A stretch of DNA of 64,000 nt, taken from Aminobacter anthyllidis. GTDB lineage: Bacteria > Pseudomonadota > Alphaproteobacteria > Rhizobiales > Rhizobiaceae. The position numbers and the translations under genes were made by a program. The notes under the pieces were generated by a model. The model was not told the origin of the DNA and made no database searches. It worked only from the letters and a program-made list of their open reading frames with translations. Within the stretch, counting starts at the first letter, position 1; each line of letters opens with the position of its first letter. Of this stretch, positions 1,806 through 27,901 are shown piece after piece. The stretch lies in contig NZ_JAFLWW010000002.1 of assembly GCF_018555685.1 (NCBI RefSeq), positions 558,001 to 622,000 on the forward strand. Reading direction: 5' to 3'.

Positions 1806-3083
1806 TCACGCTACCGGCTGATCTTCCGGCTTCAGGCCGCCCTTTTCGCGTTCGAGATAACGCCGGTCGATATCGGGTAGCGCCTCGCCCGATAGTGTAG
1901 CTTCGAAGGCGCGCAGGCGCTTGTAGATCGAGATTAGCTCAACAATCGTCGGCCAGGCGCTGACAAGGTACTGGAATGAAGAGCTGACCTGGCTAAAGGC
2001 CGTCGATATCTGCTGCCAGATTCCAAGCGTTATCTTACCCGCAGCGATGGTAGGAATGAGAATGAGACTTGAAAAGACAGCATCCGCCTGAAGGTAACCA
2101 GAGCGAATGACATTGAAATAAGCGTAATGAAAATAGAGGTTGAAATAGTTACGCCGGACGTTCGCAAACAGTTCAGCCACGGTAGGCGGCTGGGCGCGGT
2201 CTTCATGATCTTCGCCATAGACCAGTTCCTTTCGATAGGCAGCCTCAACGCGCTGGTTCTTGAATTCGAGACCCGGTAGCTTGATGCCGAAGACCATCAG
2301 CAAGATGGTGCCAAAGAGCGACCAGAAGATCGCGGCGAAGACAAGCGAGTAAGGTATCTGGCCAACGATAGGCAGCGCAGTGACATGCGTGGATAGCTGG
2401 GCCAGCAGTGGCAAGAAGGCAATCAGCGTCATTGCAGAATCGACGAAGGCAACACCTAAGCCCTCAAGCGTCGTCGAGAAGCGCATCGTGTCTTCCTGAA
2501 CACGCTGGGAAGCTCCCTCGATATGGCGCAGCTTCGGCCAATTGGCCATGTAGTAGTCGTTCATCGCGGTACGCCACCGGAAGATGTAGTGACTGACGAA
2601 GAAGCGAGTAACCACGAACAGGGAAACCGAGAAGAAGGCGATTCCGGCAAAGACCCAGAAGAGGTCGTAAAGCTCGCCTGGCGTTACTGACCCGGCGGTC
2701 GATATCGCCTTCTGGAAAAGATCGTAAAAAGGTCCACGCCATGTGTTGAGCGCAACATAGAGCTGAACAGAGGTGTAAGTGGAAAAAAGGATTGCCGACG
2801 ATCCCAGGATCGACCAACGCTGCCAGGGATGCGGCGAATACCAAGCCCAAAACGCGTAGAAGACCGCAACCAAAAACCCAAAATAGATGTAGAACCAAAG
2901 GAACGGGGCTGACAAGAATATCCGGATTCCGAGTATCGGCGGAATACCGGCTGGCGCCGGAGGCATGCCGAAGACGGCCCCCAATTGTTCGCCCCCGAAG
3001 AACCAGAACAGTACGGCAGCAAGGGTCCAGAGAACCGCCGAGGTGAAGAACAGCTTCGGCTGCGGGAAGAAGGATATGAACAC
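1806..3083 (-). CDS. bacA: BacA/SbmA-family peptide transporter
   Basis: A 425-residue inner-membrane protein resembling SbmA/BacA over its whole length (family members are about 406-425 residues). It has about seven to eight hydrophobic segments, an N-terminus beginning [12 protein letters not shown], the long loop with [11 protein letters not shown], and the C-terminal [16 protein letters not shown] region. The family imports peptides (microcin B17, bleomycin, Bac7, legume NCR peptides) using the proton gradient, and in rhizobia BacA is needed for bacteroid survival and for very-long-chain lipid A modification. The start is a GTG at 3083 with GAAAGGA upstream; the longer ATG start at 3149 would add 22 polar residues absent from the family. 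Single gene. Confidence 0.92.
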
Positions 3084-3254
3084 GGTTCCGGGTTCCTTTC
3101 GGAGACGGGGCATTGCCAGTTGGCCGCATGAAGTCACACTTCGTGGCACAAGGGAATCCCCTGCGGCGGCCGGTTATGGCAATGCGTGCCGGATCGTGGC
3201 GATTTTCCGCACCGGAATATTACAGTTTGGTCATTTGCGCAGTTCGGGGACGAC

Positions 3255-15023: not shown

Positions 15024-16037
15024 TCAGCGCACCGGCGGGGCGTACATCAGGCCGCCGGCGTTCCACAGCGCGTTGATGCCACGGTCGATCTTGAGGTCGC
15101 TCGACTGGCCGAGGTTGCGCTCGAACATCTCGCCGAAATTGCCGACCTTGGAGATGATGTTGTAGCTCCAGCGCGGGTCGAGGCCGAGCTGCTGGCCGCT
15201 ATCGCCCTCAGCACCCAGGAAGCGCTTGATCGCCGGATTTTCCGAGGTCAGGCCGGCTTCGGCGTTGTCCTTGGTGATGCCGAGCTCCTCGGCCTCGAGC
15301 AGCGCGAACAGCGTCCAGCGGACGATGTTGAACCACTTGTCCTCGCCCTGGCGGACGGCGGGCCCGAGAGGCTCCTTGGAGATGATCTCGGGCAGGACGA
15401 CATAGGCGGCCGGATCGGTGAGCTTGAGGCGCTGCGCGTAAAGTGCCGAGGCATCGGTGGTGTAGACGTCGCAGCGGCCGCCGTCGAAGGCCTTGATGAT
15501 GCCGTCGGCGGAATCGATGACCACCGGCTCGTACTTCATCTTGTGGGCGGAGAAGTAGTCCGCGACGTTCTGCTCGGTGGTGGTGCCCTGTTCGGTGCAG
15601 ACGGTGGCGCCGTCGAGCTTGAGGGCGCTGTCGACGCCGAGTTCCTTGCGCACCATGAAGCCCTGGCCGTCATAATAGGCGGTGCCGACGAAGCGGATGC
15701 CGAGGCTGGAATCGCGCGACAGCGTCCAGGTGGTCTGGCGCGACAGCACGTCGACGCCGCCGGACTGCAGCGCGGTGAAGCGCTCCTTGGTGGACAAGGG
15801 CACGTAGCTGACCTTGTCCGGATCACCGAGCACGGCGGCCGCGACCGCGCGGCAGAAGTCGATGTCGAAGCCGGACCATTTGCCGGCGTCGTCGGGCGCC
15901 GAGAAGCCAGCGACACCCTGGCTGACGCCGCAAGTGACCTTGTCGCGCTGCTTGACGATGTCGAGCGTGTCGGCTGCCGCAGGCATGGCGATGGCTGCCG
16001 ATCCGAGCAGAAGTGCGGTGGCACAGATTTTCCTCAT
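15024..16037 (-). CDS. Amino-acid ABC transporter substrate-binding protein (AapJ-like)
   Basis: A 337-residue periplasmic binding protein with a signal peptide (CATALLLGSAAIAMPAAADT, cut after AAA) and the family-3 binding core: GFDIDFCRAVAAAV, DVLSRQTTWTLSRD, and the hinge segment with ATVCTEQGTTTEQN. It resembles AapJ/BztA, which bind acidic and general L-amino acids. The start at 16037 has GGAGGAAG upstream; a longer frame to 16229 would bury the signal peptide. No permease or ATPase adjoins it, which is unusual because aapJ is normally followed by aapQMP. It lies 121 bp downstream of the tri-domain aminotransferase gene, likely in the same transcript. Confidence 0.9.
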   Translation of the reverse strand: MRKICATALLLGSAAIAMPAAADTLDIVKQRDKVTCGVSQGVAGFSAPDDAGKWSGFDIDFCRAVAAAVLGDPDKVSYVPLSTKERFTALQSGGVDVLSRQTTWTLSRDSSLGIRFVGTAYYDGQGFMVRKELGVDSALKLDGATVCTEQGTTTEQNVADYFSAHKMKYEPVVIDSADGIIKAFDGGRCDVYTTDASALYAQRLKLTDPAAYVVLPEIISKEPLGPAVRQGEDKWFNIVRWTLFALLEAEELGITKDNAEAGLTSENPAIKRFLGAEGDSGQQLGLDPRWSYNIISKVGNFGEMFERNLGQSSDLKIDRGINALWNAGGLMYAPPVR

Positions 16038-16158: not shown

Positions 16159-19100
16159 CTACGCGCCTTCGGCTGATACCGCGGCGAAGGTCTCCTCAAG
16201 CACGCCAACCAGATGGTCGGCATCGGCACGGCTGAAGATCATCGGCGGACGCATCTTGAGCACGTTGTCGTGTGGGCCCTCGGTGCCGATCAAAACGCCG
16301 CGCGCCCTGGCTCCGTCATTGACCTTGCGGGCGAATGCCGTGGCCGGCTGCTTGGTCTTACGGTCGGTGACCAGTTCGATGCCGAGAAACAGGCCCTGCC
16401 CCCTGACGTCACCGATGACATCGTAGCGCGCCTGCATCTCCCTGAAGCGGGCGACGAGGTAGGCGCCGATCTTGGCGGCGTTGTCGCGCAGCCGGTCGCG
16501 CTCGATGACGTCGAGCACGGCGAGGCCGGCCGCGCACGACACCGGGTTGCCAGCGAAGGTGTTGAAATACTCCATGCCGTTGTTGAAGCGGTCGGCGATC
16601 TCGCGCGTGGTGACCAGTGCCGACATGGGGTGGCCATTGCCGATGGGCTTGCCCATGGTGACGATGTCGGGGGTAACGCCTTGCGTCTCGAAGGCCCACC
16701 AGTGGCTGCCGACACGGCCGAAGCCGACCTGGACCTCGTCGGCGATGCAGAAGCCGCCGGCGGCGCGGACTATGGCGTAGACTTCTTTCAGGTAACCCTC
16801 AGGCAGGAAGACCTGGCCGGCGACGCTGGGGATGGATTCGGCGATGAAGAAGGCCGGCGCGCGGCCCTGTTTGCGCATCGTCTCGATCTGCTCGGCGATG
16901 CTTTCGGCGAAGCGCCTGGCATGCTCCTCGACCGGCCATTCAGCCGGCGCGCGATAGCTGTCCGGGATGGTCGCCTCGAAGACATGGGCCGGACGGCCCT
17001 TGCCGCCCTTGCGCTTGTATTTGTAGGGGCTGAGGTCGATCAGCTCCTGTGTGGTGCCGTGATAGGCCCAGTCGAGCACCAGCGCGTCGTTGCTGCCGGT
17101 CAAGGTGCGCGACATGCGCAGCGCGAGCGAATTGGCCTCGCTGCCCGAACAGGCGAAGGAGGCGACCGACAGCCCATCGGGCAAGGTTGCCGTCAGCCGC
17201 TCGGCATAGGTGACGATGGCGTCGTGCAGGTAGCGCGTGTTGGTGTTGAGTTTCGCCGCCTGGCGAGCGATGGCCTCGACGACGTCGGGGTGGGCGTGGC
17301 CGAGGTGGCAGACATTGTTGAAGCAGTCGAGATAGGCGCGGCCACGATCGTCGATCAGCCAGGCGCCCTCGCCGCGGACGAACTTGATCGGCTCGGAATA
17401 GGAGATCGACAGGTTGGGCAGCAGCGAGTTTTTCCGCGCGGCAACGATTTCGGGACGCGTGCGGCCGGTCTGGACGAAGGTTTCGGGCGGGATGCCGGCA
17501 AGTGTGGCCGCATCCTGGAACAGCTCGCGCCAGACATCGAGATAACGCGCCTCGCCGACGCCGAGGATGTCGCGGGCGGCAAGTTCGGGGTCCGCCGAGA
17601 TCTGGAAATGCAGGTGCGGCGCCCAGCCGCCGTTTTCGGCGGGTACGCCCATTTCACCGACGAGCGCACCGGCTTCGAGCTTCTGTCCCGGCTGCAGGCG
17701 CGCCATCGCCTCGTGTGCCATGTGGCCCCAGAGCGTGACGAAGGGCGGGCAGCCCTTGGGCGTGTGTTCAAGCGCGATCAGGCAGCCATAGCCCAGCGGG
17801 TCCTCCTCGATCTCGACGCTTTTGACGGTGGCGGCGAGCGGGGTGAAAACCCTTGTGCCTGCAGGCATGAACAGGTCGAGACCGAGGTGATGCACCCGGC
17901 GAGCGCCTTCGACGAAACGCGACCAGAAGATATCGGAGGTGTATACCGTGCGTGCCTCGCCCCATGGGCCAATGCCGAGCTCGATGCCGTGCTCGGTGCA
18001 CCAGGCATCCCACCAGGCGGTGGCCTTGTCGGGCTGCTGGCCAGCCGAAGTGACGGTCATCGGATGGGCCGGGTCGCCATAGGGCACCAGCGCCTTGACC
18101 AGCGTCGCCGGATGGCGATCGAGGATCGGCGCGAGGCTCTTGCGGTTGGCGCCAATCCAACTGGCGATGGCGCTGGCTCCTGATACGGCGTCGAAACCGC
18201 AGGCGTGGCGCAGGATGGCGGTGGCGAAACGGCGGTTCATCGCACTGAGCCGGCGCAGCAGCCGCCAGGCCGGCGCCTCCGATATGGCGAGATAGGGATT
18301 GTCGCCGGTCTTTTCCTTGCGCTGCGCCGAAAGCGTGACCGAGATAACCAGGCGCATGGCGATGAGGTCAAACAGGACGTCGAGTTCTTCTTCGCGCAGC
18401 GGGTACTCGGCGTGGAAGCCAGCGGCCAAGGTGGCGGCGGCACCGATCGGGTCCTCGACGTCGAGTATCGAATAGGCGCAGGCGACAGCCACTTCGGCGA
18501 TCAGGGGCGAATAGAGCGCGTCGCCGAAATCGATGATGCCGGCGATGCGCTCGTGGTTGTCCTCGTCGACAAGGACGTTCCAGTCATTGGCGTCGTTGTG
18601 GATGACCTGGGCGCGCAAGCCGGCCAGACGAGGGGCGACCTCCGCATCGAAATGATCGAGCAGGCCGCGCAGAAGGGCGCGATCCGCGACATCGGGGACA
18701 TGGTGCAGGCGCTGGCGCGCGGCACCGGCCTGGCGGATGTCCCAGTCGAACGAACGCAAGGCGCCGGGATGGATGAAGCCCTGCAGCGCGCCGTCGAGCC
18801 GGCCAAGGGCGCGGCCAAGGTTTTCGAGAAGTGCCGCGGTCCGCGCCGCCTCGGCCAGAGGCAGGCCGGGCAGCCATGACACAAGCCGCAGCGCGTGGCG
18901 CTCGCCTGTGGCACCGGTGGCTTCCGCCAGCGCCGCGCCGTCGGCGGACAGCTTCAGGCGGGGTGCGGCGACGCCTGAGCGCGCGAGGTGATCGAGCAAG
19001 GCGACCTGGAATTCGCTTTCGCTGGCAGGCTCGCTGGCATTGACGATCTTGAGGATCCACTGCGCGCCATCGTCGGCCGAAAGCTTGAAGTTCTGGTCGC

Positions 19101-19209
19101 GTTCGCTGTCGAGGGCTGTGACGCGGCCGCCGACGCCGAACCGGCCCGAAGCCAGGTCGGCGGCTTCGCCAAAGGAGAATGCGGGCGCGGGGTGGGTCAC
19201 GTCGGTCAT
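16159..19209 (-). CDS. Tri-domain fusion: APH-type kinase, M23-like domain, class III aminotransferase
   Basis: A 1016-residue protein. Residues ~15-340 are an aminoglycoside-phosphotransferase (APH)-type kinase domain with Lys54, catalytic HNDANDWN (204-211) and the metal site IIDFGD (225-230). Residues ~400-545 form an M23/LytM-like domain with H-x3-D (His441, Asp445) and H-x-H (His532, His534), so all zinc ligands look present. Residues ~575-1010 are a class III aminotransferase with ADEVQVGFG (Asp824) and PLP Lys854 in MGKPIGNG. In animals the closest pairings are separate proteins: hydroxylysine kinase (HYKK) and the AGXT2L phospho-lyases acting on 5-phosphohydroxylysine or phosphoethanolamine. 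I infer a phosphorylate-then-eliminate enzyme for an amino alcohol. It is divergent from an Lrp gene and followed by an amino-acid binding protein. Confidence 0.9.
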
Positions 19210-19339
19210 GTGCTATCCGGAATTGCTGTGATTGGAGCTTGGCACGGGCCGAAAAATCGGGCATCCGGCAAAGCGTCGGTTGCACCGGCACTATGACTGC
19301 ATGGACCGGCACTTTAACGGCACCGATCGGAACCCGGCG

Positions 19340-19777
19340 ATGAAGGAACTCGACGCCAAGGACAGGGACATTCTGGGCATTCTTTCGAAGGAGGCCCGCA
19401 TCCCGCTGAAGACGCTGGCCGGCCGCATCGGGCTGTCGCGAAGCGCCACCAGCGAACGGGTCGCTGCGCTGGAAAAGAGCGGCGTCATCCGCGGCTATCG
19501 CGCCGATATCGGCCAGATGGATTCGAACCTGGTTTCGGCCTTCCTGATGGTGACGCTGGTGTCGACGCCGTCGATGGGGGTGCTCGACCAGCTGGCGCGT
19601 TACTCGGAGGTGCGGCGGGTGTCATCGGTGACCGGCCAGCTCGACCTGATGGTCGAGGTCGAAGTGCCGTCGATCGACCGCCTCAACACGCTGCGCGACA
19701 TCATCGCCACGCACCCGAGCGTGCAGGACCTGACGACGCTGATCGTGCTGCGCCGGGACATCGAGCGGCGGGAGTAA
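19340..19777 (+). CDS. Lrp/AsnC family transcriptional regulator
   Basis: A 145-residue Lrp-type protein with an N-terminal HTH (about residues 3-60; IPLKTLAGRIGLSRSATSERV) and a C-terminal RAM/AsnC effector domain (about 68-140). The start chosen (MKELDAKDRDIL) matches the family. In-frame starts at 19301 and 19232 would add 13-36 residues rich in Arg/His that no relative has. It is divergent from the tri-domain aminotransferase gene, so an amino acid processed by that enzyme is the likely effector. The gap repeats ACCGGCACT twice, a possible operator. Confidence 0.88.
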   Translation: MKELDAKDRDILGILSKEARIPLKTLAGRIGLSRSATSERVAALEKSGVIRGYRADIGQMDSNLVSAFLMVTLVSTPSMGVLDQLARYSEVRRVSSVTGQLDLMVEVEVPSIDRLNTLRDIIATHPSVQDLTTLIVLRRDIERRE

Positions 19778-19875
19778 GCGGCGGGCGCCAGCACGGGTGG
19801 CCACCGCTCCGCGCTGGAAGGGTGACCACTTTCGCTATATGCGACATCAACGACAGGCCGAGGCAGAGGGCAGAC

Positions 19876-20373
19876 ATGGCGATCCGAGCACTCGTGAGAT
19901 TTCCAGACCCTCGCCTGCGTATCGTCGCCGAGCCTGTCACCGTCTTTGACCAAGGCCTGCGCGACCTCGCGGCGGACCTGCTCGACACGATGCGCGCGGC
20001 GCCCGGCATCGGCATCACTGCGCCGCATATCGGCATCGGCAGGCGGGTGGTGGTGCTTCAGCTCGAAGGCCCGGGCAGTGCGCGAACCTACGTCAATCCG
20101 CGGATACTCTGGGCATCTGAGGAGACGATCCTGCATACCGAAGGCAGCGTGTCGATGCCGGGCGTCACCGACGAGATCAGGCGGCACGCGCGGGTGCGTA
20201 TCACCTATCAGGATATCGACGGCACTGAACGCACCGAGGAGGCGGAGGGCCTGCTCGCCGTCTGCCATCAGCACGAGATCGACCAGCTCGACGGCATGTT
20301 CTGGATCCAGCGGCTGTCAAAGCTGAAACGGGACCGGCTGGTCAAGCGCTACGAGAAGCTGCTGCGGGCCTAG
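19876..20373 (+). CDS. Peptide deformylase-like protein with altered metal ligands
   Basis: A 165-residue protein with the peptide deformylase (Def) fold pattern: RFPDPRLR start, GIGITAPHIG (motif I, canonical GxGLAAxQ), EGSVSMPG (motif II, canonical EGCLS) and CHQHEIDQLDG (motif III, canonical HExDH). The cysteine ligand of motif II is serine, the second histidine of motif III is glutamine, and the motif I glutamine is histidine. Two of the three metal ligands are therefore missing, and ordinary deformylase activity is unlikely. The reading frame is otherwise intact with normal codon use, so it looks like a retained paralog with another role. Start at 19876, preceded by GAGGGC. A housekeeping def gene presumably exists elsewhere. 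Confidence 0.82.
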   Translation: MAIRALVRFPDPRLRIVAEPVTVFDQGLRDLAADLLDTMRAAPGIGITAPHIGIGRRVVVLQLEGPGSARTYVNPRILWASEETILHTEGSVSMPGVTDEIRRHARVRITYQDIDGTERTEEAEGLLAVCHQHEIDQLDGMFWIQRLSKLKRDRLVKRYEKLLRA

Positions 20374-20425: not shown

Positions 20426-20515
20426 GCCTATGTCCGAGCCGATGCGTCGCGCATATCCTAGGTCCCGGCCGGGGCGCCGGGCCTATCCGATGTTCTCGCC
20501 AGCGTGCCGGGCCTA
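20426..20515. repeat. Three imperfect 30-bp tandem repeats
   Basis: Three consecutive 30-base units (20426-20455, 20456-20485, 20486-20515) share the frame TCC-N-A-GTYC near the start and a GCGNNGCGGGC(C)TA-like end; the second and third are the most alike (both end GCCGGGCCTA). The array lies between the converging deformylase-like and MlrC genes and includes the MlrC stop codon. The GC-rich self-complementary GGCCGGGGCGCCGGGCC within it may form a hairpin. Confidence 0.5.
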
Positions 20516-21961
20516 AGCGGTCACCGGCCATTTCGGCAGCTTGATCCTGGTGTAGGGGAGGCTGGCGAGGTTGGAGGTGACTGTGCCCTCCGTCGCGGCA
20601 TAGATGACCTCCGTGGCGACCTTCTCATAGGACGCGCGGAAGTGCTGGGTCGACTTCACCACCACGATTCTTTTCTCGCCGAGGTCGCAGCCGATGCCGG
20701 TGAAGAGGTCGGTGTCGATCGCCTGCGACCTCTCAGAGGCCAGCAGCACCTGGACGCCGCCGCAGTCGACCAAGGCGCAATCGCCCATCGGCGAGGGAAC
20801 ACCGCCGAGGCCGGTCATCACCAGGCCGCGCTTGAGTGCCACGACCCGGCAGGTGACGTCGACCGGATTGCCGGAGCGCGGGCCGACCTTGCCGCCGACG
20901 CGCAGCGGCAGCACGGCGCCCTCGCCGGCCTCGAAGACAAGGCGCACGGCGATCGGGTCCCACAGCGGACCGATGACGGCGTCGCTGATGCCGCGCTCGA
21001 TCATGCGGGCGAGGAAGAAGGTCGAGTCGCTGGCGGCACCGCCGCCGGCATTGTCAGCCGTGTCGGCGATGACAACCGTACCTGCCGGCACGGCAAGTGC
21101 CTGGTCAAGCGCCTCGTCGACGCCGGGCATGGGCGGCACGATCTCGGCGCGCATGGCGTAGAGATCATTGGCCAGCCGCTGCGCCAGCGACTGTGCCAGA
21201 TCCTGGTTGTCGTCGGTGTAGACCACCACGCGCGTTCCCATTTCGGGCACGTCGGCCCAGGGAAAACCTTGCGCGATCGATACCGACAGCACCTTGTCCT
21301 TCTGCTCCATGGCACGGATGCCGGCGATGATCGACAGGCCGGGTTCGGTGGTGGTGCGGATGAAGGTGACCATGCCGGTGTCGACAAGCGCTGCCTTCGG
21401 CTTGATCTCGCCCGTGGCGATGCGGTGGCAGAGATCGACGAGCTGCACGCCGCATTCATAGACGTCGGTGTGGGGGTATTCCTTGTAGGTCAAAAGGATG
21501 TCGACATTGTCGATCATCTCTGAAGTCATGTGGCAATGCGGGTCGAGCTCGCAGCCAACGACAGTGTCGGGGCCAACGATCTCGCGGATGCGGGCGAGGA
21601 TATCGCCTTCGCAATCGTCATAGCCGTCGGCGACCATGGCGCCGTGCAGCGACATCAGCACCATGTCGACGGGCAGGACGGCGCGCAGGTCGCCGAGCAG
21701 CTGGTCGCGCAGCGTCTCATAGGCATGGCGGGTGGTGGTTCCGCCCGGTTCGGCCGAGGCGCTGAGGCCTTCGAACAGGGTCCAGCCCTCGCGGCGGCCA
21801 CGCTCGCGCGCCGCCCACAGCTGACCGCCATAAAGCGTCATGTGATCGGGATGCTCGCCGGCGGGATAATAGTCGCCGCCACTGACGAAGGCGGTCAGGC
21901 CGGTGGGGATGGGCGAGAATGTATTGGTCTCGGTCGCAAGGACGGCACTGAACACACGCAT
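20513..21961 (-). CDS. M81 family metallopeptidase (MlrC-like)
   Basis: A 482-residue protein of the MlrC family, named for the enzyme degrading linearised microcystin. An N-terminal DUF1485 domain (begins RVFSAVLATETNTFSP) carries the probable zinc ligands in VGCELDPHCHMT and the LHGAM segment. The MlrC C-terminal domain follows (about 300-480). Enzymes of this family cleave peptides containing D- or unusual residues, which fits its position at the 3' end of a D-peptide operon. The ATG at 21961 starts the family-typical N-terminus; a longer same-frame reading to 22900 is only a shadow of the CobW gene. The gap to the upstream gene is 23 bp. Confidence 0.9.
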   Translation of the reverse strand: MRVFSAVLATETNTFSPIPTGLTAFVSGGDYYPAGEHPDHMTLYGGQLWAARERGRREGWTLFEGLSASAEPGGTTTRHAYETLRDQLLGDLRAVLPVDMVLMSLHGAMVADGYDDCEGDILARIREIVGPDTVVGCELDPHCHMTSEMIDNVDILLTYKEYPHTDVYECGVQLVDLCHRIATGEIKPKAALVDTGMVTFIRTTTEPGLSIIAGIRAMEQKDKVLSVSIAQGFPWADVPEMGTRVVVYTDDNQDLAQSLAQRLANDLYAMRAEIVPPMPGVDEALDQALAVPAGTVVIADTADNAGGGAASDSTFFLARMIERGISDAVIGPLWDPIAVRLVFEAGEGAVLPLRVGGKVGPRSGNPVDVTCRVVALKRGLVMTGLGGVPSPMGDCALVDCGGVQVLLASERSQAIDTDLFTGIGCDLGEKRIVVVKSTQHFRASYEKVATEVIYAATEGTVTSNLASLPYTRIKLPKWPVTA

Positions 21962-21984
21962 GATGGGACGACTCCGCTTGCGGG

Positions 21985-22893
21985 TTATGAGGTGAAGATT
22001 TCGGAGAGCCGGGCATGCGCCGTCTCGGTGTCGATGACAGCCGCCTCGCCGATCAGGACCAGGCGGCAATCGGGCTCGAACTTCGGAAACGGCTGCAAGG
22101 TGGCACGCCGACCGACCATCTGCAGCAGGAAGCTCTGTCCGGGCCGCTCGATGAAATTGACGATGCCCTTGGCGCGGATGAGCTTGGGCGCGAGCCGGTC
22201 GATGGCGGCCTGGAAGCGGTCGAGCGAAACCGGGGCCGCCGATTGCCATTCGATCGAGGTGAAGCGCGAAGCGCCGACCTTCGCCTGGCCGGTCTGGGCC
22301 GGCGGCCGATCTGCGACAAGCAGTGCCTCGATCGGCATGGCATCGCCGTCGGTCTCGAAGACAAGCGTCTTGTTGAGCCAGACAAGCTCGGCTCGCAGGG
22401 CCTCGCCCGAGCTTTCGCTCAGTCCGGTCTTGGACAGCGCTATGAAGTCGGCCGCCTCGACCTGGGCGCGCCACAACTCGTCGCGCAGGCGACCGGGATT
22501 GGCCGCGACCTCGTCGGCATCGACGACGGCGACAACCGCATCGAGGCGGATGTCGTGCCACAGGATCGGGTCCATCAGCGTTTCGGTGATGCCGCGCGGG
22601 TCGGCGACCCCTGATGCTTCGATGACGATGTGGTCGGGCTTGGCGGGCTGGGAGAGCACGAGCTTGAGCGTCCGCAGCAGGTCGCCCTGCAGCGAGCAGC
22701 AGATGCAGCCGTTCTTCAGTCCGACGACAGTGTCGGCCGCGTCGGCGATCAGCTCCGCATCGATATTGATGGCGCCAAAGTCGTTGACGATGGCGCTGAT
22801 GCGCCGGCCTTCGGACCGTTGCAGAAGCTGGTTGATGAACGTCGTCTTGCCGGCGCCCAGAAAGCCGGTGACGACGAGGACAGGAACGCTCAC
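21985..22893 (-). CDS. CobW/G3E-family GTPase (metallochaperone-like)
   Basis: A 302-residue GTPase with Walker A GFLGAGKTT (about residues 10-18), the metal-binding C-x-C-C motif in KNGCICCSLQGDL (about 60-72), the EASGVADP switch II region and a C-terminal CobW_C domain. The guanine-specificity motif NKxD appears as SKTG. G3E proteins deliver metals (Zn, Co, Ni) to specific enzymes using GTP. It sits between two predicted metallohydrolases and overlaps the upstream one by 4 bp, so it may load one of them, probably with zinc (inference). Confidence 0.9.
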   Translation of the reverse strand: MSVPVLVVTGFLGAGKTTFINQLLQRSEGRRISAIVNDFGAINIDAELIADAADTVVGLKNGCICCSLQGDLLRTLKLVLSQPAKPDHIVIEASGVADPRGITETLMDPILWHDIRLDAVVAVVDADEVAANPGRLRDELWRAQVEAADFIALSKTGLSESSGEALRAELVWLNKTLVFETDGDAMPIEALLVADRPPAQTGQAKVGASRFTSIEWQSAAPVSLDRFQAAIDRLAPKLIRAKGIVNFIERPGQSFLLQMVGRRATLQPFPKFEPDCRLVLIGEAAVIDTETAHARLSEIFTS

Positions 22894-24383
22894 GCGTCAC
22901 CTCGCCTGATGGGGCGCCCGGGGGCTGCGGCGCGGTCGAGGACGCCGTCCGAAATCACCACCTGGCCGTTGACCAGCACGTGGCGCATGCCTTCGGCCGG
23001 CAGGTTCATCTCGGCGAAGGTAGCGCGGTCGGCGATCGTTGCGAGATCGAAGGCCACGATGTCGGCATCGCAGCCTGGCTGCAGCCGGCCCTTGCGCTGA
23101 AACAGCGGCGCGCAGCTCTCGACGATCCGGGCTGGAATGAGCGTGCACTTGGCGATCGCCTCGACGAGCGGGATCGCATCGCGCTCGCGCACCCACTGGC
23201 GCAGGAAGCGGGTGAAGGTACCAGAGGATCGGGGGTGCGCGGTCTTGTCGGGTCCGAGCGGCCATTCGTTGCCCTCATACGGCGTGCCGTCCGGCTGGCT
23301 CCACGGCATCGCATCGGAGGCGATGGCGCCTCCCGGATACATCACCGAGACATCGAGCAGCGCGCGGTGGCGCGGATTGTCCTCGGTGTCGAGGAAGTGC
23401 CAGAGCACAAGAGCCGAGGGATCGGCCTGGCGGACCTGCTTGAGGTCGTCGATACCGTCGAGGCGGCGGTGCGTGGTGACAAGCTCGATCGCGTCGTAGC
23501 CGGTGCCGGTGCGGGCGGAAAATGCCGGATCGACGAAGAAGCCGGCGCTGACGACCGTCGAGCCGGTGCCATAGGGATAGGCCTCGGTGGTTATCCTGAG
23601 CCCTTGCGCCTGCGCCCTGGCGATGATCGCCGCCGCGCGCTCGACGTCCTGCAGGCTTGTCGAGTTGAGATGGCAGATGTGCATATGCGCGCCGGTGGCG
23701 CCGGCGAGGCCGATCAGCGTGACATAAGCCTCGATCGAGCTCTTGGGGTCGATGTTCGACATCTGCGCGATGTGGGTATAGGTCGGCGTGTCGGTCTCGG
23801 CGGCCAGATCGCAGATCAGGCTCATTTCCTTGGCGCCGGCGCCGGGCGCGTAGCCGGCGGGGATACCGATGCCAAGCGCCCCTTCCTCGATGCCCTTGCG
23901 GGTGAGCGCAACGATCTCGTTTGCCTGTGCTTCGGTGGCGGCATCGGTCGACCAGCGCGGGTCGTCGAAGCCGCGCCCCATGACCGTGATCGGCGCTTCG
24001 CCTGACTTAAGTTCCAGCCCGATCATCACCGCCTTGCGGGCGAAGACCCAGGCGGAAGCTGTGCCGTAGTTGAGCAGGCGCGCGGTGTTGGCCTGCGCCC
24101 CATACCAGCCGCCGACCGGCAAGGCGCCGACTTCCAGTTCGAGCGCGGTGGTCACGCCATCGAAGGCCTGCATGCGATCAGCAGGCACGGACTGACCATG
24201 GGCGTGCAAGTCGATGAAACCGGGTGCCACGATCAGCCCCTCGGCGTCGACCACCTTGTGTGCCGGGCCAAGACCGGCACCGATGGCAGCAATCTTGTCG
24301 CCCGATATGGCGATGTCGGTAATCTCGTCGCGGCCGGTCTCGGGGTCGACGACGCGCCCACCTTTGATCAAGATGTCATGCAT
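22890..24383 (-). CDS. D-aminoacylase-like amidohydrolase
   Basis: A 497-residue amidohydrolase of the N-acyl-D-amino-acid deacylase type. It has the IDLHAHGQS metal motif (about residues 56-64), GALGIGIPAGYAPGAGAKEM near the middle, THIAQMS and HICHLNS ligands, and ASDAMPW with the catalytic Asp. D-aminoacylases release D-amino acids from N-acyl derivatives. The ATG at 24383 overlaps the ATPase stop by 8 bp and is preceded by GAAAGGG; the start at 24428 lies inside the ATPase gene. It is part of the operon that imports and degrades D-residue peptides. Confidence 0.9.
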   Translation of the reverse strand: MHDILIKGGRVVDPETGRDEITDIAISGDKIAAIGAGLGPAHKVVDAEGLIVAPGFIDLHAHGQSVPADRMQAFDGVTTALELEVGALPVGGWYGAQANTARLLNYGTASAWVFARKAVMIGLELKSGEAPITVMGRGFDDPRWSTDAATEAQANEIVALTRKGIEEGALGIGIPAGYAPGAGAKEMSLICDLAAETDTPTYTHIAQMSNIDPKSSIEAYVTLIGLAGATGAHMHICHLNSTSLQDVERAAAIIARAQAQGLRITTEAYPYGTGSTVVSAGFFVDPAFSARTGTGYDAIELVTTHRRLDGIDDLKQVRQADPSALVLWHFLDTEDNPRHRALLDVSVMYPGGAIASDAMPWSQPDGTPYEGNEWPLGPDKTAHPRSSGTFTRFLRQWVRERDAIPLVEAIAKCTLIPARIVESCAPLFQRKGRLQPGCDADIVAFDLATIADRATFAEMNLPAEGMRHVLVNGQVVISDGVLDRAAAPGRPIRRGDA

Positions 24384-25197
24384 GGACGACCCTTTCGGCA
24401 GCGCGGCGCTTCTTGCCAGGAACGGCATCGATCAGCCGGCGGGTGTAGTCGGACTTTGGGGTGCGGAAAATCTCTGACGTCGGGCCAACCTCCTCCAGCA
24501 CGCCACGGTTCAACACGCCAACGCGCTGGCAAAGGTGATCGACAACCGACAGGTCGTGCGAGATGAACAGCATCGCCAGGCCCTGCTCGGTGCAGATCTT
24601 GCGCAGCAGTTGCAGCACCTGCGCCTGGCTGGAAACGTCGAGTGCCGAGACCGGCTCGTCGGCGATCAAAAGCTTCGGCCCGGAGGCCAATGCGCGGGCG
24701 ATAGCGATGCGCTGGCGCTGGCCGCCGGAGAACTGATGCGGGAAACGGTCGAGCCAGTCCGGATTGAGGCCGACCTGCTCCATCAGCTCGGCCGCGCGCG
24801 CCGTCAGGTTCGAACCCTTGAGGTCGGTGTAGGATTTGAGCGGCTCGGCCAGGATGTCGCGCACCCGCCAGCGCGGATCGAGGGAGGCATAAGGGCTCTG
24901 GAACACCATCTGGACGTCGCGGCGCTTGTCGCGCAGCGCCCTGCCGCGCAAAGCGAGCCAATCCTCGCCGTCGAAGCTGACCGATCCGGCGCTCGGCTCG
25001 GTCAGCCGGGCGATGATGCGGCCGATTGTCGACTTGCCCGAACCGCTTTCACCGACAAGCCCGAAAGCCTCCCCGCGCTTGATGGAGAAGCTGACATCGT
25101 TGACCGCCGTCAGCTGGCGCGACTTCTCAAACAGCCGGCCCGACAGGGTGAAATGGCGGACCAGCCCGCGCACCTCGAGCAGCGCCTCATCAGCCAT
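24376..25197 (-). CDS. Dipeptide/oligopeptide ABC transporter ATP-binding protein (DppF/OppF-like)
   Basis: A 273-residue nucleotide-binding subunit. Walker [11 protein letters not shown]-loop MVFQSPYASLDPRW, signature FSGGQRQRIAIARAL, Walker B LLIADEP and the H-loop SHDLSVV are all intact. The family-specific C-terminal oligopeptide domain (VLNRGVLEEVGPTSEIF) supports a peptide importer. It overlaps the OppD-like gene by 8 bp. Confidence 0.93.
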   Translation of the reverse strand: MADEALLEVRGLVRHFTLSGRLFEKSRQLTAVNDVSFSIKRGEAFGLVGESGSGKSTIGRIIARLTEPSAGSVSFDGEDWLALRGRALRDKRRDVQMVFQSPYASLDPRWRVRDILAEPLKSYTDLKGSNLTARAAELMEQVGLNPDWLDRFPHQFSGGQRQRIAIARALASGPKLLIADEPVSALDVSSQAQVLQLLRKICTEQGLAMLFISHDLSVVDHLCQRVGVLNRGVLEEVGPTSEIFRTPKSDYTRRLIDAVPGKKRRAAERVVHA

Positions 25198-26020
25198 GGC
25201 TCACCTCACTTTGCATGTGACCGGCGCCGAAGCTCGGCCGCGCGTTGAGCAATTGAAGCGTGTAGGCATGCCTGGGACGGCTCAGCACATCATCGACATG
25301 ACCGGCCTCGACGATGACGCCGTCCTTCATCACCACGACATCCTCGCAGACATCGCTGACGACATCGAGATCGTGGCTGATCAGGATCATCGCCGTGCCC
25401 TGCTCGCGGCTCAGTTCCTGCATCAGCCGCAGGATCTGCGCCTGCACGGTGACATCTAGTGCCGTGGTCGGCTCGTCGGCGATCAGCAGAGCCGGCTTGA
25501 GCGCGATCGCGGCGGCGATAACCACGCGCTGGCGCATGCCACCCGACAATTGATGCGGGTAGGCATCGATGCGGCGCGAAGCTTCCTGGATGCCGACGCG
25601 TTCGAGCAGGTCGAGGCTGGCTGAGCGGATCGCGCGGCGCGACATGTCGGGGCGATGGAAACGGAACACCTCGCCGATCTGGTCGCCAACACGCATGACC
25701 GGGTTCAGCGTCGCCATTGCATCCTGGAACACCATGGCGATCCGGTTGCCGCGCAGCTTGCGCCAGTCGCGGCCAGACAAGGCAAGCAGGTCGCGGCCTT
25801 CGAAAGTGACCGCGCCACCCAGGGTGGCGTGCGAGGCATCGGTCAGCCGCATCAGCGCATAGCCGATCGAAGACTTGCCCGAGCCGCTTTCACCGACAAC
25901 GCCAAGCACCGAACCCGGTGCGACGGAAAAGCTGACGCCGTTGACGGCGCGGACCGGGCCGTGGCGGCTGGGGTAGTCGACGGTCAGGTCGCGAACCGAC
26001 AACAAGGCAGAGGCTGTCAT
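25190..26020 (-). CDS. Dipeptide/oligopeptide ABC transporter ATP-binding protein (DppD/OppD-like)
   Basis: A 276-residue partner ATPase with Walker [10 protein letters not shown], signature [15 protein letters not shown], Walker [13 protein letters not shown] and the H-loop SHDLDVV. It starts at the ATG at 26020, two bases before the permease stop; a longer frame upstream runs inside the permease gene. With the OppF-like subunit it forms the heterodimeric motor of the importer. Confidence 0.93.
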
Positions 26021-26022
26021 GA

Positions 26023-26919
26023 TCACATCCTCTCCAGCCGTGGATCGAAATAGTCGCGCAGGAAATCGCCGAACAAATTGATGCCGACCGAAGAGATCAG
26101 GACGGCGATGCCGGGCGCGATGACGATCCATGGCTGGTCGTGGAGGAAGTCCCGGCCTTCCGAGATCATCACGCCCCACGATGCCGTCGGCGGCTGCACG
26201 CCGAGGCCGAGGAAAGACAAAGCGGCCTCGGAGATGATGACCAGGGCGATGTCGAGGGTGGCGACAACCAGCACCGCCGGCAGTACGTTGGGCAGCACGT
26301 GCGTGAAGATGATGCGCATCTGCGACACGCCCATGGTGATCGCTGCGTCGACATAATCAAGGGTGCGGATGCGCATGGTTTCGCTGCGCACGATGCGGGC
26401 GAAATTGATCCACAGCGCAAAGGCCAGCGCCATGACCAGCGTGGCGAAGCCGGCACCCAGGACCGCCATGAAGATCAGCGCCAGCAACAGGAACGGAAAG
26501 GCGAGCTGGAAGTCGACGATGCGCATGATGATGGTGTCGACAAAGCCGCCGAAATAGCCGGCGAGCGCACCGAGCGTCGAGCCGACGACGAGTGCGATCG
26601 ACACCACGATCAACGCCACCTGGATCGAGACCTGCGCGCCCATGATGGTCCGGCTGAGGATATCGCGACCCATGTTGTCGCCGCCGAGCAGGTTGGTGGT
26701 GGTGCCGCCATCCTGCCAGACAGTGGGGGCATAGCGCCACTCGATGACCTGCTGGGCATGATCATGCGGGGCAAGGCTTGTCGCGAAGATGGCGCAGAGC
26801 ACGACGATGGCGATCAGAAACAGGCCTGAGATGCCCTTGGCGCTGCGGCTCAGCGCACCGAGGAAGCGGCGTTCCGTGCCGGCCTTTGCAGCGGCGGGGA
26901 CGATCACGGCGTCAGTCAT
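26023..26919 (-). CDS. Dipeptide ABC transporter permease (DppC/OppC-like)
   Basis: A 298-residue permease with an N-terminal cytoplasmic tail, about six membrane segments and the EAA-type coupling loop (DYVDAAITMGVSQMRIIFTH). The periplasmic segment LLGGDNMGRDILSR is the OppC-family mark. The start at 26919 overlaps the DppB-like stop by 8 bp; the upstream extension to 27168 is antisense-type low-complexity sequence inside the other permease gene. Confidence 0.92.
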   Translation of the reverse strand: MTDAVIVPAAAKAGTERRFLGALSRSAKGISGLFLIAIVVLCAIFATSLAPHDHAQQVIEWRYAPTVWQDGGTTTNLLGGDNMGRDILSRTIMGAQVSIQVALIVVSIALVVGSTLGALAGYFGGFVDTIIMRIVDFQLAFPFLLLALIFMAVLGAGFATLVMALAFALWINFARIVRSETMRIRTLDYVDAAITMGVSQMRIIFTHVLPNVLPAVLVVATLDIALVIISEAALSFLGLGVQPPTASWGVMISEGRDFLHDQPWIVIAPGIAVLISSVGINLFGDFLRDYFDPRLERM

Positions 26920-27901
26920 TGCGCACCCTCGGGTCGATGAAGCGGTACAGGATGTCGACGACCAGGTTGAGCGAGATGAACAGCGCCGCCGACACCAGCA
27001 CCACCGCCTGGATGATCGGATAATCGCGGACCTGGATCGAATCGACGGCGAGCCGGCCGATGCCGGGCCAGGCGAACACCGTTTCGATGACGACGGTGCC
27101 CGAGAGCAGCGCGCCCATCTGCAGGCCAGCCAGGGTGACGATCGGCAGCAGCGCGTTGCGCAAGGCATGGCGCAGGATGATGGTGAGGCGCGGCACGCCC
27201 TTGGCGGTGGCGAAGGTGATGTAGTCCTGCTGCAGCACTTCGAGCATGGCGGAGCGGATCAGCCGCGCATTGACCGCCACCAGCACGAAGGCAAGCGAGA
27301 TCGACGGCAGGATGAAGTAGCGGAAGGCATTCCAGAAGATGGAGACGTCGCGTTCGACCACGGCGCGCCCAATGCTCGCCAGAGCCGAGCCACGATAGCC
27401 GGAGGCGGGCAGCCAGCGCAGTTCGATCGAAAACCACAGGATCATCAGCACGGCAAGCAGGAAGCCCGGCATCGACACGCCAAGCACGGCGACGAAGGTG
27501 CCGGCATAGTCGATCCAGCTGTCACGCTTGAGCGCGGTGACGATGCCAAGCGGGATGGCAATGACGAAGGCCAGCAGCAGCGTCCAGAAGGCGAGCTCGC
27601 CGGTCGCCGGCAGACGATCGGCGATCAGGCTGGTGACCGGAACGCCCTGGCGGATCGAGGTGCCGAGGTCGCCCTGCACGGCCTGGCCGAGATAGGCGAC
27701 GAACTGCTCGGGCACGGAGCGCGTCAGCCCCATCTTTTCGCGCAGCGTGTCCATGTCCTGGACGCTCATGCCGGGATTGCCGGCGGCAATCACGTCGACC
27801 GGATCGCCCGGCACGAGCTTGACCAGCGAGGCCACCACAAGGATGACCCCGAGGAGAATGACGGCCGCATAGAGCAGCCTCGATACCAACAACCTCAGCA
27901 T
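26912..27901 (-). CDS. Dipeptide ABC transporter permease (DppB/OppB-like)
   Basis: A 329-residue permease with the N-terminal helix MLRLLVSRLLYAAVILLGV, the periplasmic loop containing LVPGDPVDV and GDLGTSIRQG, five further helices and the coupling loop DYITFATAKGVPRLTIILRH. A TTG one codon upstream is possible, but the ATG at 27901 is preferred. It follows the binding-protein gene after 13 bp. Confidence 0.92.
   Translation of the reverse strand: MLRLLVSRLLYAAVILLGVILVVASLVKLVPGDPVDVIAAGNPGMSVQDMDTLREKMGLTRSVPEQFVAYLGQAVQGDLGTSIRQGVPVTSLIADRLPATGELAFWTLLLAFVIAIPLGIVTALKRDSWIDYAGTFVAVLGVSMPGFLLAVLMILWFSIELRWLPASGYRGSALASIGRAVVERDVSIFWNAFRYFILPSISLAFVLVAVNARLIRSAMLEVLQQDYITFATAKGVPRLTIILRHALRNALLPIVTLAGLQMGALLSGTVVIETVFAWPGIGRLAVDSIQVRDYPIIQAVVLVSAALFISLNLVVDILYRFIDPRVRND

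What the first reader, a model, noticed from the sequence alone, without database searches (positions are those of the whole stretch)
16159..19209. Kinase + M23-like domain + class III aminotransferase in one 1016-residue protein
The APH-type and aminotransferase domains pair in animals as separate enzymes for hydroxylysine and phosphoethanolamine (phosphorylation, then PLP-dependent phosphate elimination). Here they are fused with an M23 endopeptidase-like domain between them that keeps all its zinc ligands. A peptidase domain inside a small-molecule catabolic enzyme is surprising: it may hydrolyse a peptide- or cell-wall-linked substrate, or serve as a scaffold or phosphosubstrate channel.
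Basis: partly seen in the sequence, partly recalled or inferred. Interest (0 to 1): 0.85.

Follow-up and report, generated by a model that had tools for sequence, protein, structure and literature searches.

The report
Kinase–zinc peptidase–phospholyase fusion enzyme
One bacterial protein joins two enzymes that probably break down an amino alcohol such as hydroxylysine to a zinc peptidase domain of unknown job; the fusion belongs to a known family without an assigned function, and what the well-preserved peptidase domain does in its middle is a real open question.

Summary
One 1016-residue ORF (16159-19209, minus) has an APH kinase (31-270), a Peptidase_M23 domain (441-539) and a class III PLP enzyme (608-1006). 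It is not a one-off: it matches NCBIfam PRK06148, "hypothetical protein", end to end above its cut-off, and 75 of 80 named loci found with the M23 cassette carry the same three-part ORF, in at least seven phyla. The C-terminal domain is nearest to human ethanolamine-phosphate phospho-lyase, so it is probably a phospholyase. The M23 fold is modelled with high confidence (pLDDT 95.2; PDB matches). All five M23 site residues are invariant in the 86 intact-type rows that cover them (bias check). A nested clade, PRK06149, keeps the domain but has lost the site. Neighbours include an Lrp regulator (40 of 80 loci) and amino-acid binding proteins; 8 of 80 loci add beta-glycosidases, which could fit collagen hydroxylysine. 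Best reading: hydroxylysine-type kinase plus phospholyase, with an active cytosolic zinc amidase or peptidase feeding it. The substrate and the M23 role are inferred, not shown.

The parts
16159..19209 (-). Three-domain ORF, 1016 aa, PRK06148 family
18400..19119 (-). APH-type kinase domain (residues 31-270), with His204, Asp206, Asn211 and Asp227
   Evidence: Pfam PF01636 1.8e-32; D206, N211, D227 in 79 of 79 intact fused rows, H204 in 74 of 79
17440..18192 (-). M23 cassette as modelled (residues 340-590); holds the family motif G414, E418, R420, Y423, R438 and the site H441, D445, H496, H532, H534
   Evidence: AlphaFold2 with 60 sequences, mean pLDDT 95.2, pTM 0.91; Foldseek ranks 1-46 of the 50 rows listed are M23/LytM-type proteins; conservation
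17593..17889 (-). Peptidase_M23 Pfam match (residues 441-539)
   Evidence: PF01551 4.6e-12
16192..17388 (-). Class III PLP domain (residues 608-1006), phospholyase-like; PLP lysine Lys854
   Evidence: PF00202 3.1e-77; best PDB match 6tor ethanolamine-phosphate phospho-lyase, 440 bits
15024..16037 (-). Family 3 (amino-acid type) binding protein downstream on the same strand; the ORF opens at 16229, the start at 16037 is inferred by eye from a signal-peptide-like N-terminus
   Evidence: PF00497 2.4e-15; TIGR01096 196.9 bits, below its cut-off of 256.35; a relative lies beside the fusion in other loci
19232..19777 (+). Divergent Lrp/AsnC regulator upstream (start codon uncertain)
   Evidence: PF13412, PF13404, PF01037 (scanned from 19268); an Lrp homologue in 40 of 80 related loci

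Best explanation
A cytosolic catabolic enzyme in three stages on one chain. The N-terminal APH-type kinase phosphorylates the hydroxyl group of an amino alcohol, most likely 5-hydroxylysine (ethanolamine-like substrates are possible in some branches). The C-terminal PLP domain is a phospholyase that removes phosphate and ammonia to leave an aldehyde (2-aminoadipate semialdehyde if the substrate is hydroxylysine). The central M23 domain is a working zinc hydrolase that frees the substrate from a small amide or peptide conjugate, for example a hydroxylysine-containing dipeptide, before the kinase acts. Shown here: the three domains, the intact and conserved M23 site, kinship to phospholyases, and the amino-acid uptake and (in a minority) glycosidase neighbourhood. 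Inferred: every reaction, the substrate, the cytosolic location (no export signal seen by eye) and the order of steps.
For: Domains and family. Lyase part: human ETNPPL 6tor 440 bits, Arthrobacter phospholyase 5g4i 350 bits (its source organism is recalled), next class III enzyme 205 bits (best 60 of 192 matches shown). M23 fold. H441, D445, H496, H532, H534 in 86 of 87 intact-type rows; the 87th is an L106 fragment that does not reach the region (many rows are close kin). Not an artefact of the motif search: 43 of 43 loci that fit only the HxH pattern keep H441/D445, 6 of 6 that fit only the HxxxD pattern keep H532/H534, H496 lies in neither pattern, and 10 of 10 rows found by profile keep all five. 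By the usual M23 mechanism (recalled) H496 and H532 are catalytic and not zinc ligands, so a purely structural zinc would not keep them. Extra invariant charged residues E418, R420, R438 would fit a small charged substrate (inference). Neighbours: Lrp in 40 of 80 loci, amino-acid binding proteins and permeases. Eight of 80 loci share an amino-acid binding protein, a long permease, a LacI regulator and an SDR, with a GH1 (6) or GH42 (2) enzyme, and five with an MGH1-like glycosidase; a Sinorhizobium meliloti plasmid has the block with GH42 and MGH1-like. Collagen hydroxylysine carries Glc-alpha1,2-Gal (PMC8626586, passages), whose release needs an alpha-glucosidase and a beta-galactosidase. PF22422 (MGH1-like) is above its cut-off in 29 of 150 genomes of the phylum.
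Against: No activity or ligand has been measured. Separate kinase and lyase ORFs without M23 occur in 11 fetched loci, and the PRK06149 clade has a dead M23 site, so the M23 step is not needed in general. The glycosidase block is a minority (8 of 80 loci) and is absent from the genes scanned beside the window gene; the one GH1 member scanned against NCBIfam is a beta-glucosidase (TIGR03356), not a beta-galactosidase, and reading the MGH1-like protein as an alpha-glucosidase is my inference. A galactonate kinase (DGOK) follows a kinase-lyase pair in one Tabrizicola genome (L161) but lay within 20 kb of no lyase listed in 37 genomes, 28 of which have DGOK. Other contexts point elsewhere: glutamine-synthetase-like genes near the M23-lyase of L037 and beside the Paracoccus fusion, and a cupin with an EutQ-like match near the L161 pair. 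Pseudomonas fluorescens is reported to convert 5-hydroxylysine by monooxygenase and racemase routes (PMC12930750, passage). The human PHYKPL and hydroxylysine kinase sequences were not at hand for comparison.
Confidence: 0.42

Rival explanations
1. Same kinase and phospholyase, but the M23 domain is not a hydrolase in this setting: it is a scaffold or regulatory zinc domain that spaces the two enzymes or gates transfer between them.
For: In the 75 fused loci the domain sits between kinase and lyase, and the PRK06149 clade keeps the domain after losing H441, H496, H532 and H534 (9 of 9 rows; profile match 96.9% probability), so it is useful there without catalysis.
Against: Outside that clade all five site residues are invariant in the 86 rows that cover them, including H496 and H532, which a structural zinc should not need. 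The cassette also exists as a separate protein with the site intact (L038, L133, L145, L150, L124), where it cannot space anything.
Confidence: 0.27
2. The substrate is ethanolamine or another small amino alcohol, not hydroxylysine; the lyase yields acetaldehyde or a similar aldehyde.
For: The closest solved relatives are an ethanolamine-phosphate phospho-lyase and a related phospholyase (6tor, 5g4i). Glutamine-synthetase-like and amino-acid permease genes near L037 and a glutamine-synthetase-like gene beside the Paracoccus fusion, and an EutQ-like cupin near the L161 pair, would suit an amine.
Against: The usual neighbours are binding proteins nearest to the lysine/arginine/ornithine model, all below its cut-off. 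No ethanolamine-utilisation gene turned up among the recurrent neighbour clusters that I annotated; not every cluster was annotated. The glycosidase block fits a glycosylated hydroxy amino acid better.
Confidence: 0.25
3. An ordinary omega-transaminase with an accessory kinase-like domain.
For: Public annotation of relatives calls it a class III-fold aminotransferase.
Against: The two phospholyases score 440 and 350 bits, the next class III enzyme 205; kinase motif residues are conserved.
Confidence: 0.05

Closest known systems
NCBIfam NF004799 / PRK06148 (three-domain subfamily named 'hypothetical protein')
   Same: Full-length match, same order of domains, above the curated cut-off. Four divergent intact relatives scanned (L013, L144, L125, L141) also pass it.
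   Different: Nothing seen; the family has no assigned function, so membership does not explain it.
NCBIfam NF004800 / PRK06149 aminotransferase
   Same: Same three-part layout, about 970 aa; central domain homologous.
   Different: Window scores 666.8 against a cut-off of 973. Five dead-site proteins scanned (L015, L017, L043, the second genes of L082 and L157) all pass PRK06149 with 1603-1648 bits and fail PRK06148, and all five lack the M23 site.
ETNPPL / AGXT2L1 ethanolamine-phosphate phospho-lyase (PDB 6tor) and phospholyase 5g4i
   Same: Closest solved relatives of residues 582-1012.
   Different: The solved chains (499 and 446 aa) are too short to hold a kinase and an M23 domain as well.
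Animal hydroxylysine kinase (AGPHD1) with PHYKPL (AGXT2L2)
   Same: APH-type kinase plus phospholyase (recalled; that AGXT2L1 and AGXT2L2 are lyases on phosphoethanolamine and phosphohydroxylysine is stated in a passage of PMC9283133).
   Different: Separate proteins, no M23 domain (recalled); sequences not compared here.
M23/LytM endopeptidases (lysostaphin, LytM, ShyA, Csd)
   Same: Domain, fold and complete HxxxD, His, HxH site.
   Different: No export signal seen by eye at the N-terminus, fused to metabolic enzymes, extra invariant G414/E418/R420/Y423/R438 motif.

Membership tests
PRK06148 (NF004799) | Full-length score above curated cut-off | tested here: met
   1655.5 against 1128 bits, positions 1-1012 of 1015
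PRK06149 (NF004800) | Score above curated cut-off | tested here: not met
   666.8 against 973 bits
Peptidase M23 | Pfam gathering score | tested here: met
   46.4 against 28.7 bits
Peptidase M23 | HxxxD, His and HxH site residues | tested here: met
   H441, D445, H496, H532, H534 present; invariant in 86 of 86 covering rows
Peptidase M23 | LytM fold | tested here: met
   pLDDT 95.2; of 288 Foldseek matches at E <= 10, 45 have E <= 0.001 and all 45 are M23/LytM-type, a few so judged by recall and not by title
Peptidase M23 | Zinc binding and peptide hydrolysis | not testable with these tools
PLP phospholyase (ETNPPL/PHYKPL type) | Closer to phospholyases than to other class III enzymes | tested here: met
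   6tor 440 bits, 5g4i 350 bits, next 205 bits
PLP phospholyase (ETNPPL/PHYKPL type) | A GPHxNVLK stretch shared by 6tor, 5g4i and the window | tested here: inconclusive
   Present in the window but in only 37 of 91 intact fused rows, 0 of 9 dead-site rows and 5 of 24 stand-alone rows (the 24 include 6tor, 5g4i and an outgroup epimerase); not a reliable signature
PLP phospholyase (ETNPPL/PHYKPL type) | Releases phosphate and ammonia from a phospho-amine | not testable with these tools
   needs assay
Hydroxylysine kinase | APH domain and HxD...N / D motif | tested here: met
   PF01636 1.8e-32; D206, N211, D227 79 of 79, H204 74 of 79
Hydroxylysine kinase | Phosphorylates hydroxylysine | not testable with these tools
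   nearest PDB kinase is a weak match to homoserine kinase 2ppq, E 7.3e-06

The most novel reading that the evidence does not exclude
The fusion is a one-chain pathway for hydroxylysine locked in collagen-derived conjugates: a cytosolic M23 enzyme, recruited from the cell-wall hydrolases, cuts hydroxylysine out of small peptides, the kinase tags it and the lyase deaminates it, with glycosidase neighbours removing its sugars in some lineages. The PRK06149 clade with a dead M23 site would then mark bacteria that take the free substrate.
Probability: 0.22. Interest if true: 0.75.

Novelty: new member of a known kind. Interest (0 to 1): 0.5.

Why it matters
M23 enzymes are known as cell-wall hydrolases that act outside the cell (recalled). 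A family in many phyla that keeps a complete M23 site inside what looks like a cytosolic amino-alcohol catabolic enzyme, with a nested clade that has lost the site but not the domain, is a natural experiment on what that domain does, and it allows a direct genetic test. If the hydroxylysine reading is right, it would add a bacterial route for the modified amino acid of collagen and its glycosides.

Tried and rejected
Chance ORF or assembly fusion: rejected, since the same ORF recurs in 75 of 80 loci. Ordinary transaminase: disfavoured. A GPHxNVLK phospholyase signature: tried and dropped, too variable. A single-sequence full-length AlphaFold model was useless (pLDDT 35.7) and was not used. A general link to galactose catabolism (DGOK): seen once (L161), within 20 kb of no lyase listed in 37 genomes, so not used as support. 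That the matches to PRK06148 in 297 of 299 genomes mean presence of the fusion: no, most listed ones cover only the class III region; only the 8 genomes above the cut-off were counted.

Literature. PRK06148 as a term is held by one paper (listing only). Searches for the M23 domain with kinase and aminotransferase terms (4, 17 and 6 papers listed) showed no title or abstract start on this fusion. Hydroxylysine searches (20 of 30, 15 of 202, 15 of 39 and 12 of 15 papers listed) led me to passages of seven papers: PMC8154272 (references only, not used), PMC12930750, PMC8626586, PMC9283133, PMC13275390, PMC13406643 (reference only, not used) and PMC12138971. No paper was read whole. The library lacks most subscription papers, so this does not show that nothing is in print. 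The 2012 paper of Veiga-da-Cunha et al. is not held; its abstract is recalled (bacterial homologues forming bi- or trifunctional proteins with a putative kinase). PMC12138971, a review with a passage on gene fusion, has it in its reference list.

Limits. Neighbour counts are BLAST matches at 1e-15 or better within at most 10 kb on each side; several loci are cut by contig ends; the ATPase and permease queries also pick up generic relatives and were not used as counts. The tree is a quick one: 65 rows, made of 30 of 91 intact fusions thinned by identity, 2 of 3 M23-lyases (the L106 fragment left out), all 9 dead-site rows and all 24 stand-alone rows including three PDB references; many deep forks are open.
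Full report
Observation. The ORF at 16159-19209 on the minus strand encodes 1016 aa from an ATG. Pfam finds APH (31-270), Peptidase_M23 (441-539) and Aminotran_3 (608-1006), all above cut-off. NCBIfam PRK06148, a subfamily named only "hypothetical protein", covers residues 1-1012 at 1655.5 bits against a cut-off of 1128; PRK06149 scores 666.8 against 973. So the fusion is real and belongs to a catalogued family without an assigned function.

C-terminal domain. Against the PDB the best matches are human ethanolamine-phosphate phospho-lyase 6tor (440 bits; the species is recalled) and the phospholyase 5g4i (350 bits); the next, an isoleucine 2-epimerase, has 205 bits. A passage of PMC9283133 states that human AGXT2L1 and AGXT2L2 are lyases on phosphoethanolamine and phosphohydroxylysine, not transaminases. 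The PLP lysine is Lys854, kept in 79 of 79 intact fused and 9 of 9 dead-site rows.

Kinase. Asp206, Asn211 and Asp227 are in 79 of 79 intact fused rows, His204 in 74 of 79. The PDB gives only a weak match to homoserine kinase 2ppq (E 7.3e-06), so sequence alone does not name the substrate.

M23 domain. A profile of the cassette matches 28 distinct PDB sequences, best 2hsi, putative peptidase M23, E 2.9e-09. AlphaFold2 on residues 340-590 with 60 sequences gives mean pLDDT 95.2 and pTM 0.91. Foldseek ranks 1-46 of the 50 rows shown are M23/LytM-type proteins, among them the lysostaphin catalytic domain (4qpb, TM by target 0.68); for a cyanophage internal protein (also hit by the profile), SpoIIQ, LECT2 and the phi29 tail protein that judgement rests partly on recall.

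Distribution. In 75 of the 80 one ORF holds kinase, M23 and lyase; in L106 the gene is split over two ORFs; L124, L133, L145 and L150 hold the cassette alone. Hosts named in the record titles include Pseudomonadota, Gemmatimonadota, Acidobacteria, Bacteroidetes, Chloroflexi, Latescibacterota, Marinimicrobia and a Desulfobacterales bin, many only as metagenome bins. Among 299 genomes of the phylum 8 have an above-cut-off PRK06148 match, the window's genome included. In 385 genomes of the class the cassette profile finds 17 strong places (179 bits or more) in 14 genomes; all other listed places score below 50 bits and look like ordinary M23 proteins. The two nearest named loci are Aminobacter, 91% and 89% in the cassette.

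Site conservation. H441, D445, H496, H532 and H534 are present in 86 of 87 intact-type rows; the 87th is an L106 fragment that does not reach the region. The search patterns contain some of these residues, so I checked for bias: 31 loci fit both patterns, 43 only the HxH pattern and 6 only the HxxxD pattern; the 43 all keep H441 and D445, the 6 all keep H532 and H534, and H496 lies in neither pattern. Ten further rows found by profile keep all five. G414, E418, R420, Y423, R438, H482, N526, G527 and W529 are also unchanged in these sets, P531 in all but one row (L052). By the usual M23 mechanism (recalled) H441, D445 and H534 bind zinc while H496 and H532 are catalytic, so the conservation points to catalysis.

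A clade with a dead site. Nine fused proteins of 969-1034 aa (L015, L016, L017, L043, L044 and the second fusion genes of L082, L092, L093, L106) lack H441, H496, H532 and H534; D445 stays in 7 of 9, E418 in 7 (Q in 2) and R420 in 9. Profile comparison shows that the central domains are homologous (probability 96.9%, E 1.3e-10). The NCBI models follow this split in every full-length case scanned: five dead-site proteins pass PRK06149 and fail PRK06148, four intact relatives (L013, L144, L125, L141) pass PRK06148 and fail PRK06149. In the lyase tree the dead-site rows form one clade (100) inside the intact fusions on a long branch, so the site was most likely lost once. In S. meliloti (L157) an intact gene and a dead-site gene lie near each other, beside hutC and hutF.

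Split and partial forms. L037 (692 aa) and L051 (732 aa) have M23 and lyase without kinase. L038 is a 298-aa M23 protein alone. Of the five genomes with a lone cassette (four, and G247), four also have an unfused lyase of 388-471 bits; the fifth, a metagenome bin, has no lyase match above 180 bits. In two of the four the lyase is 10-11 kb from the lone M23 gene; in one of these (L159) it is followed by an APH kinase and a PHO4 phosphate transporter. In 11 loci fetched for their lyase the kinase is a separate neighbouring ORF and neither has an M23 domain. One genome (G071) has both such a pair and an intact fusion.

Tree. Human ETNPPL falls among the intact fusions in a starred 34-row clade, but the forks near it are open; the root and the place of the stand-alone lyases are unsure.

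Neighbourhood. In the window the gene is followed by an amino-acid type binding protein and faces an Lrp/AsnC regulator. Among the 80 loci 40 have an Lrp homologue, and amino-acid binding proteins are frequent: 19 loci match one query and 18 a second; their nearest NCBIfam model is lysine/arginine/ornithine binding, below cut-off. Eight loci (L077, L120, L122, L129, L130, L135, L138, L144) share an amino-acid binding protein (68-100% identical to the query), a long permease, a LacI regulator and an SDR, with GH1 in six and GH42 in two; five also have an MGH1-like glycosidase. In L129 that gene overlaps the start of the fusion by four bases. A S. meliloti plasmid (L156) shows the block with GH42 and MGH1-like, and its fusion has the intact site. 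L120 and L144 lie apart in the tree, and L077 is 87% identical to the window in the lyase, so the block recurs beside different branches of the fusion. Background: PF22422 passes its cut-off in 29 of 150 genomes. GH1 occurs in 19 of 37 lyase-bearing genomes and lies within 10 kb of the fusion in G071 and G051, 2 of the 8 with an above-cut-off fusion; L077 appears to be the same genome as G051, so these counts overlap.

Substrate. Collagen hydroxylysine carries Glc-alpha1,2-Gal (PMC8626586, passages), and an amino-acid importer with an alpha-glucosidase, a beta-galactosidase, a kinase and a phospholyase is what its use would need. This is inference from gene order. Against it: the block is a minority; the GH1 enzyme of L077 is named a beta-glucosidase; the MGH1-like enzyme is an alpha-glucosidase only by my inference; other contexts have glutamine-synthetase-like genes or an EutQ-like cupin; and other hydroxylysine routes are reported in Pseudomonas (PMC12930750, passage). 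An operon annotated as Lrp regulator, 4-aminobutyrate aminotransferase and hydroxylysine kinase (with a 2-haloacid dehalogenase) is noted in Herbaspirillum (PMC13275390, passage), a pair with the same type of regulator by annotation.

Judgement. Kinase plus phospholyase: about 0.8. Active M23 hydrolase in this protein: about 0.65. Hydroxylysine as substrate: about 0.5. M23 acting on peptide conjugates of that substrate: about 0.3. The family is catalogued and functionally unnamed. What this work adds is the census that separates an intact (PRK06148) and a dead-site (PRK06149) M23 clade, and the recurrent link to glycosidase blocks.

Noticed in passing
L157 8001-15183 (Sinorhizobium meliloti pSymB); also L082, L092, L093, L106: Intact-M23 fusion and dead-M23 fusion lie near each other, one binding-protein gene between them in L157, beside hutC/hutF histidine-use genes.
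   Followed up: partly
L161 6483-11291 (Tabrizicola): Kinase, lyase, 2-keto-3-deoxy-galactonokinase, KDPG-type aldolase and SMP-30 lactonase follow each other on one strand; no such DGOK within 20 kb of a listed lyase in 37 other genomes.
   Followed up: yes
L159 3995-7777: Lyase, APH kinase and PHO4 phosphate transporter in a row; L160 has the lyase and ORFs of the same sizes in the same order (not scanned). A lone M23 gene lies 10-11 kb away in both.
   Followed up: partly
L156 7629-24144 (S. meliloti LMB1 pA): Block of LacI, amino-acid binding protein, permease, SDR, intact fusion, sugar binding protein, MGH1-like glycosidase, LacI and GH42, by BLAST to annotated relatives.
   Followed up: partly
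window 20513-27168: MlrC-like M81 peptidase, CobW GTPase, PRK09061 amidohydrolase and ABC transporter genes in a row on the minus strand; looks like a peptide-use cluster.
   Followed up: no
window 19822-20373: Peptide-deformylase-like gene beside the Lrp regulator, NF009484 279.5 bits against a cut-off of 190.
   Followed up: no
window 1806-3149: SbmA-type peptide transporter, above its cut-off.
   Followed up: no
L106 8686-11794 (Sinorhizobium medicae): The three-domain gene is split over two overlapping ORFs in this record; a frameshift or a sequencing error.
   Followed up: no
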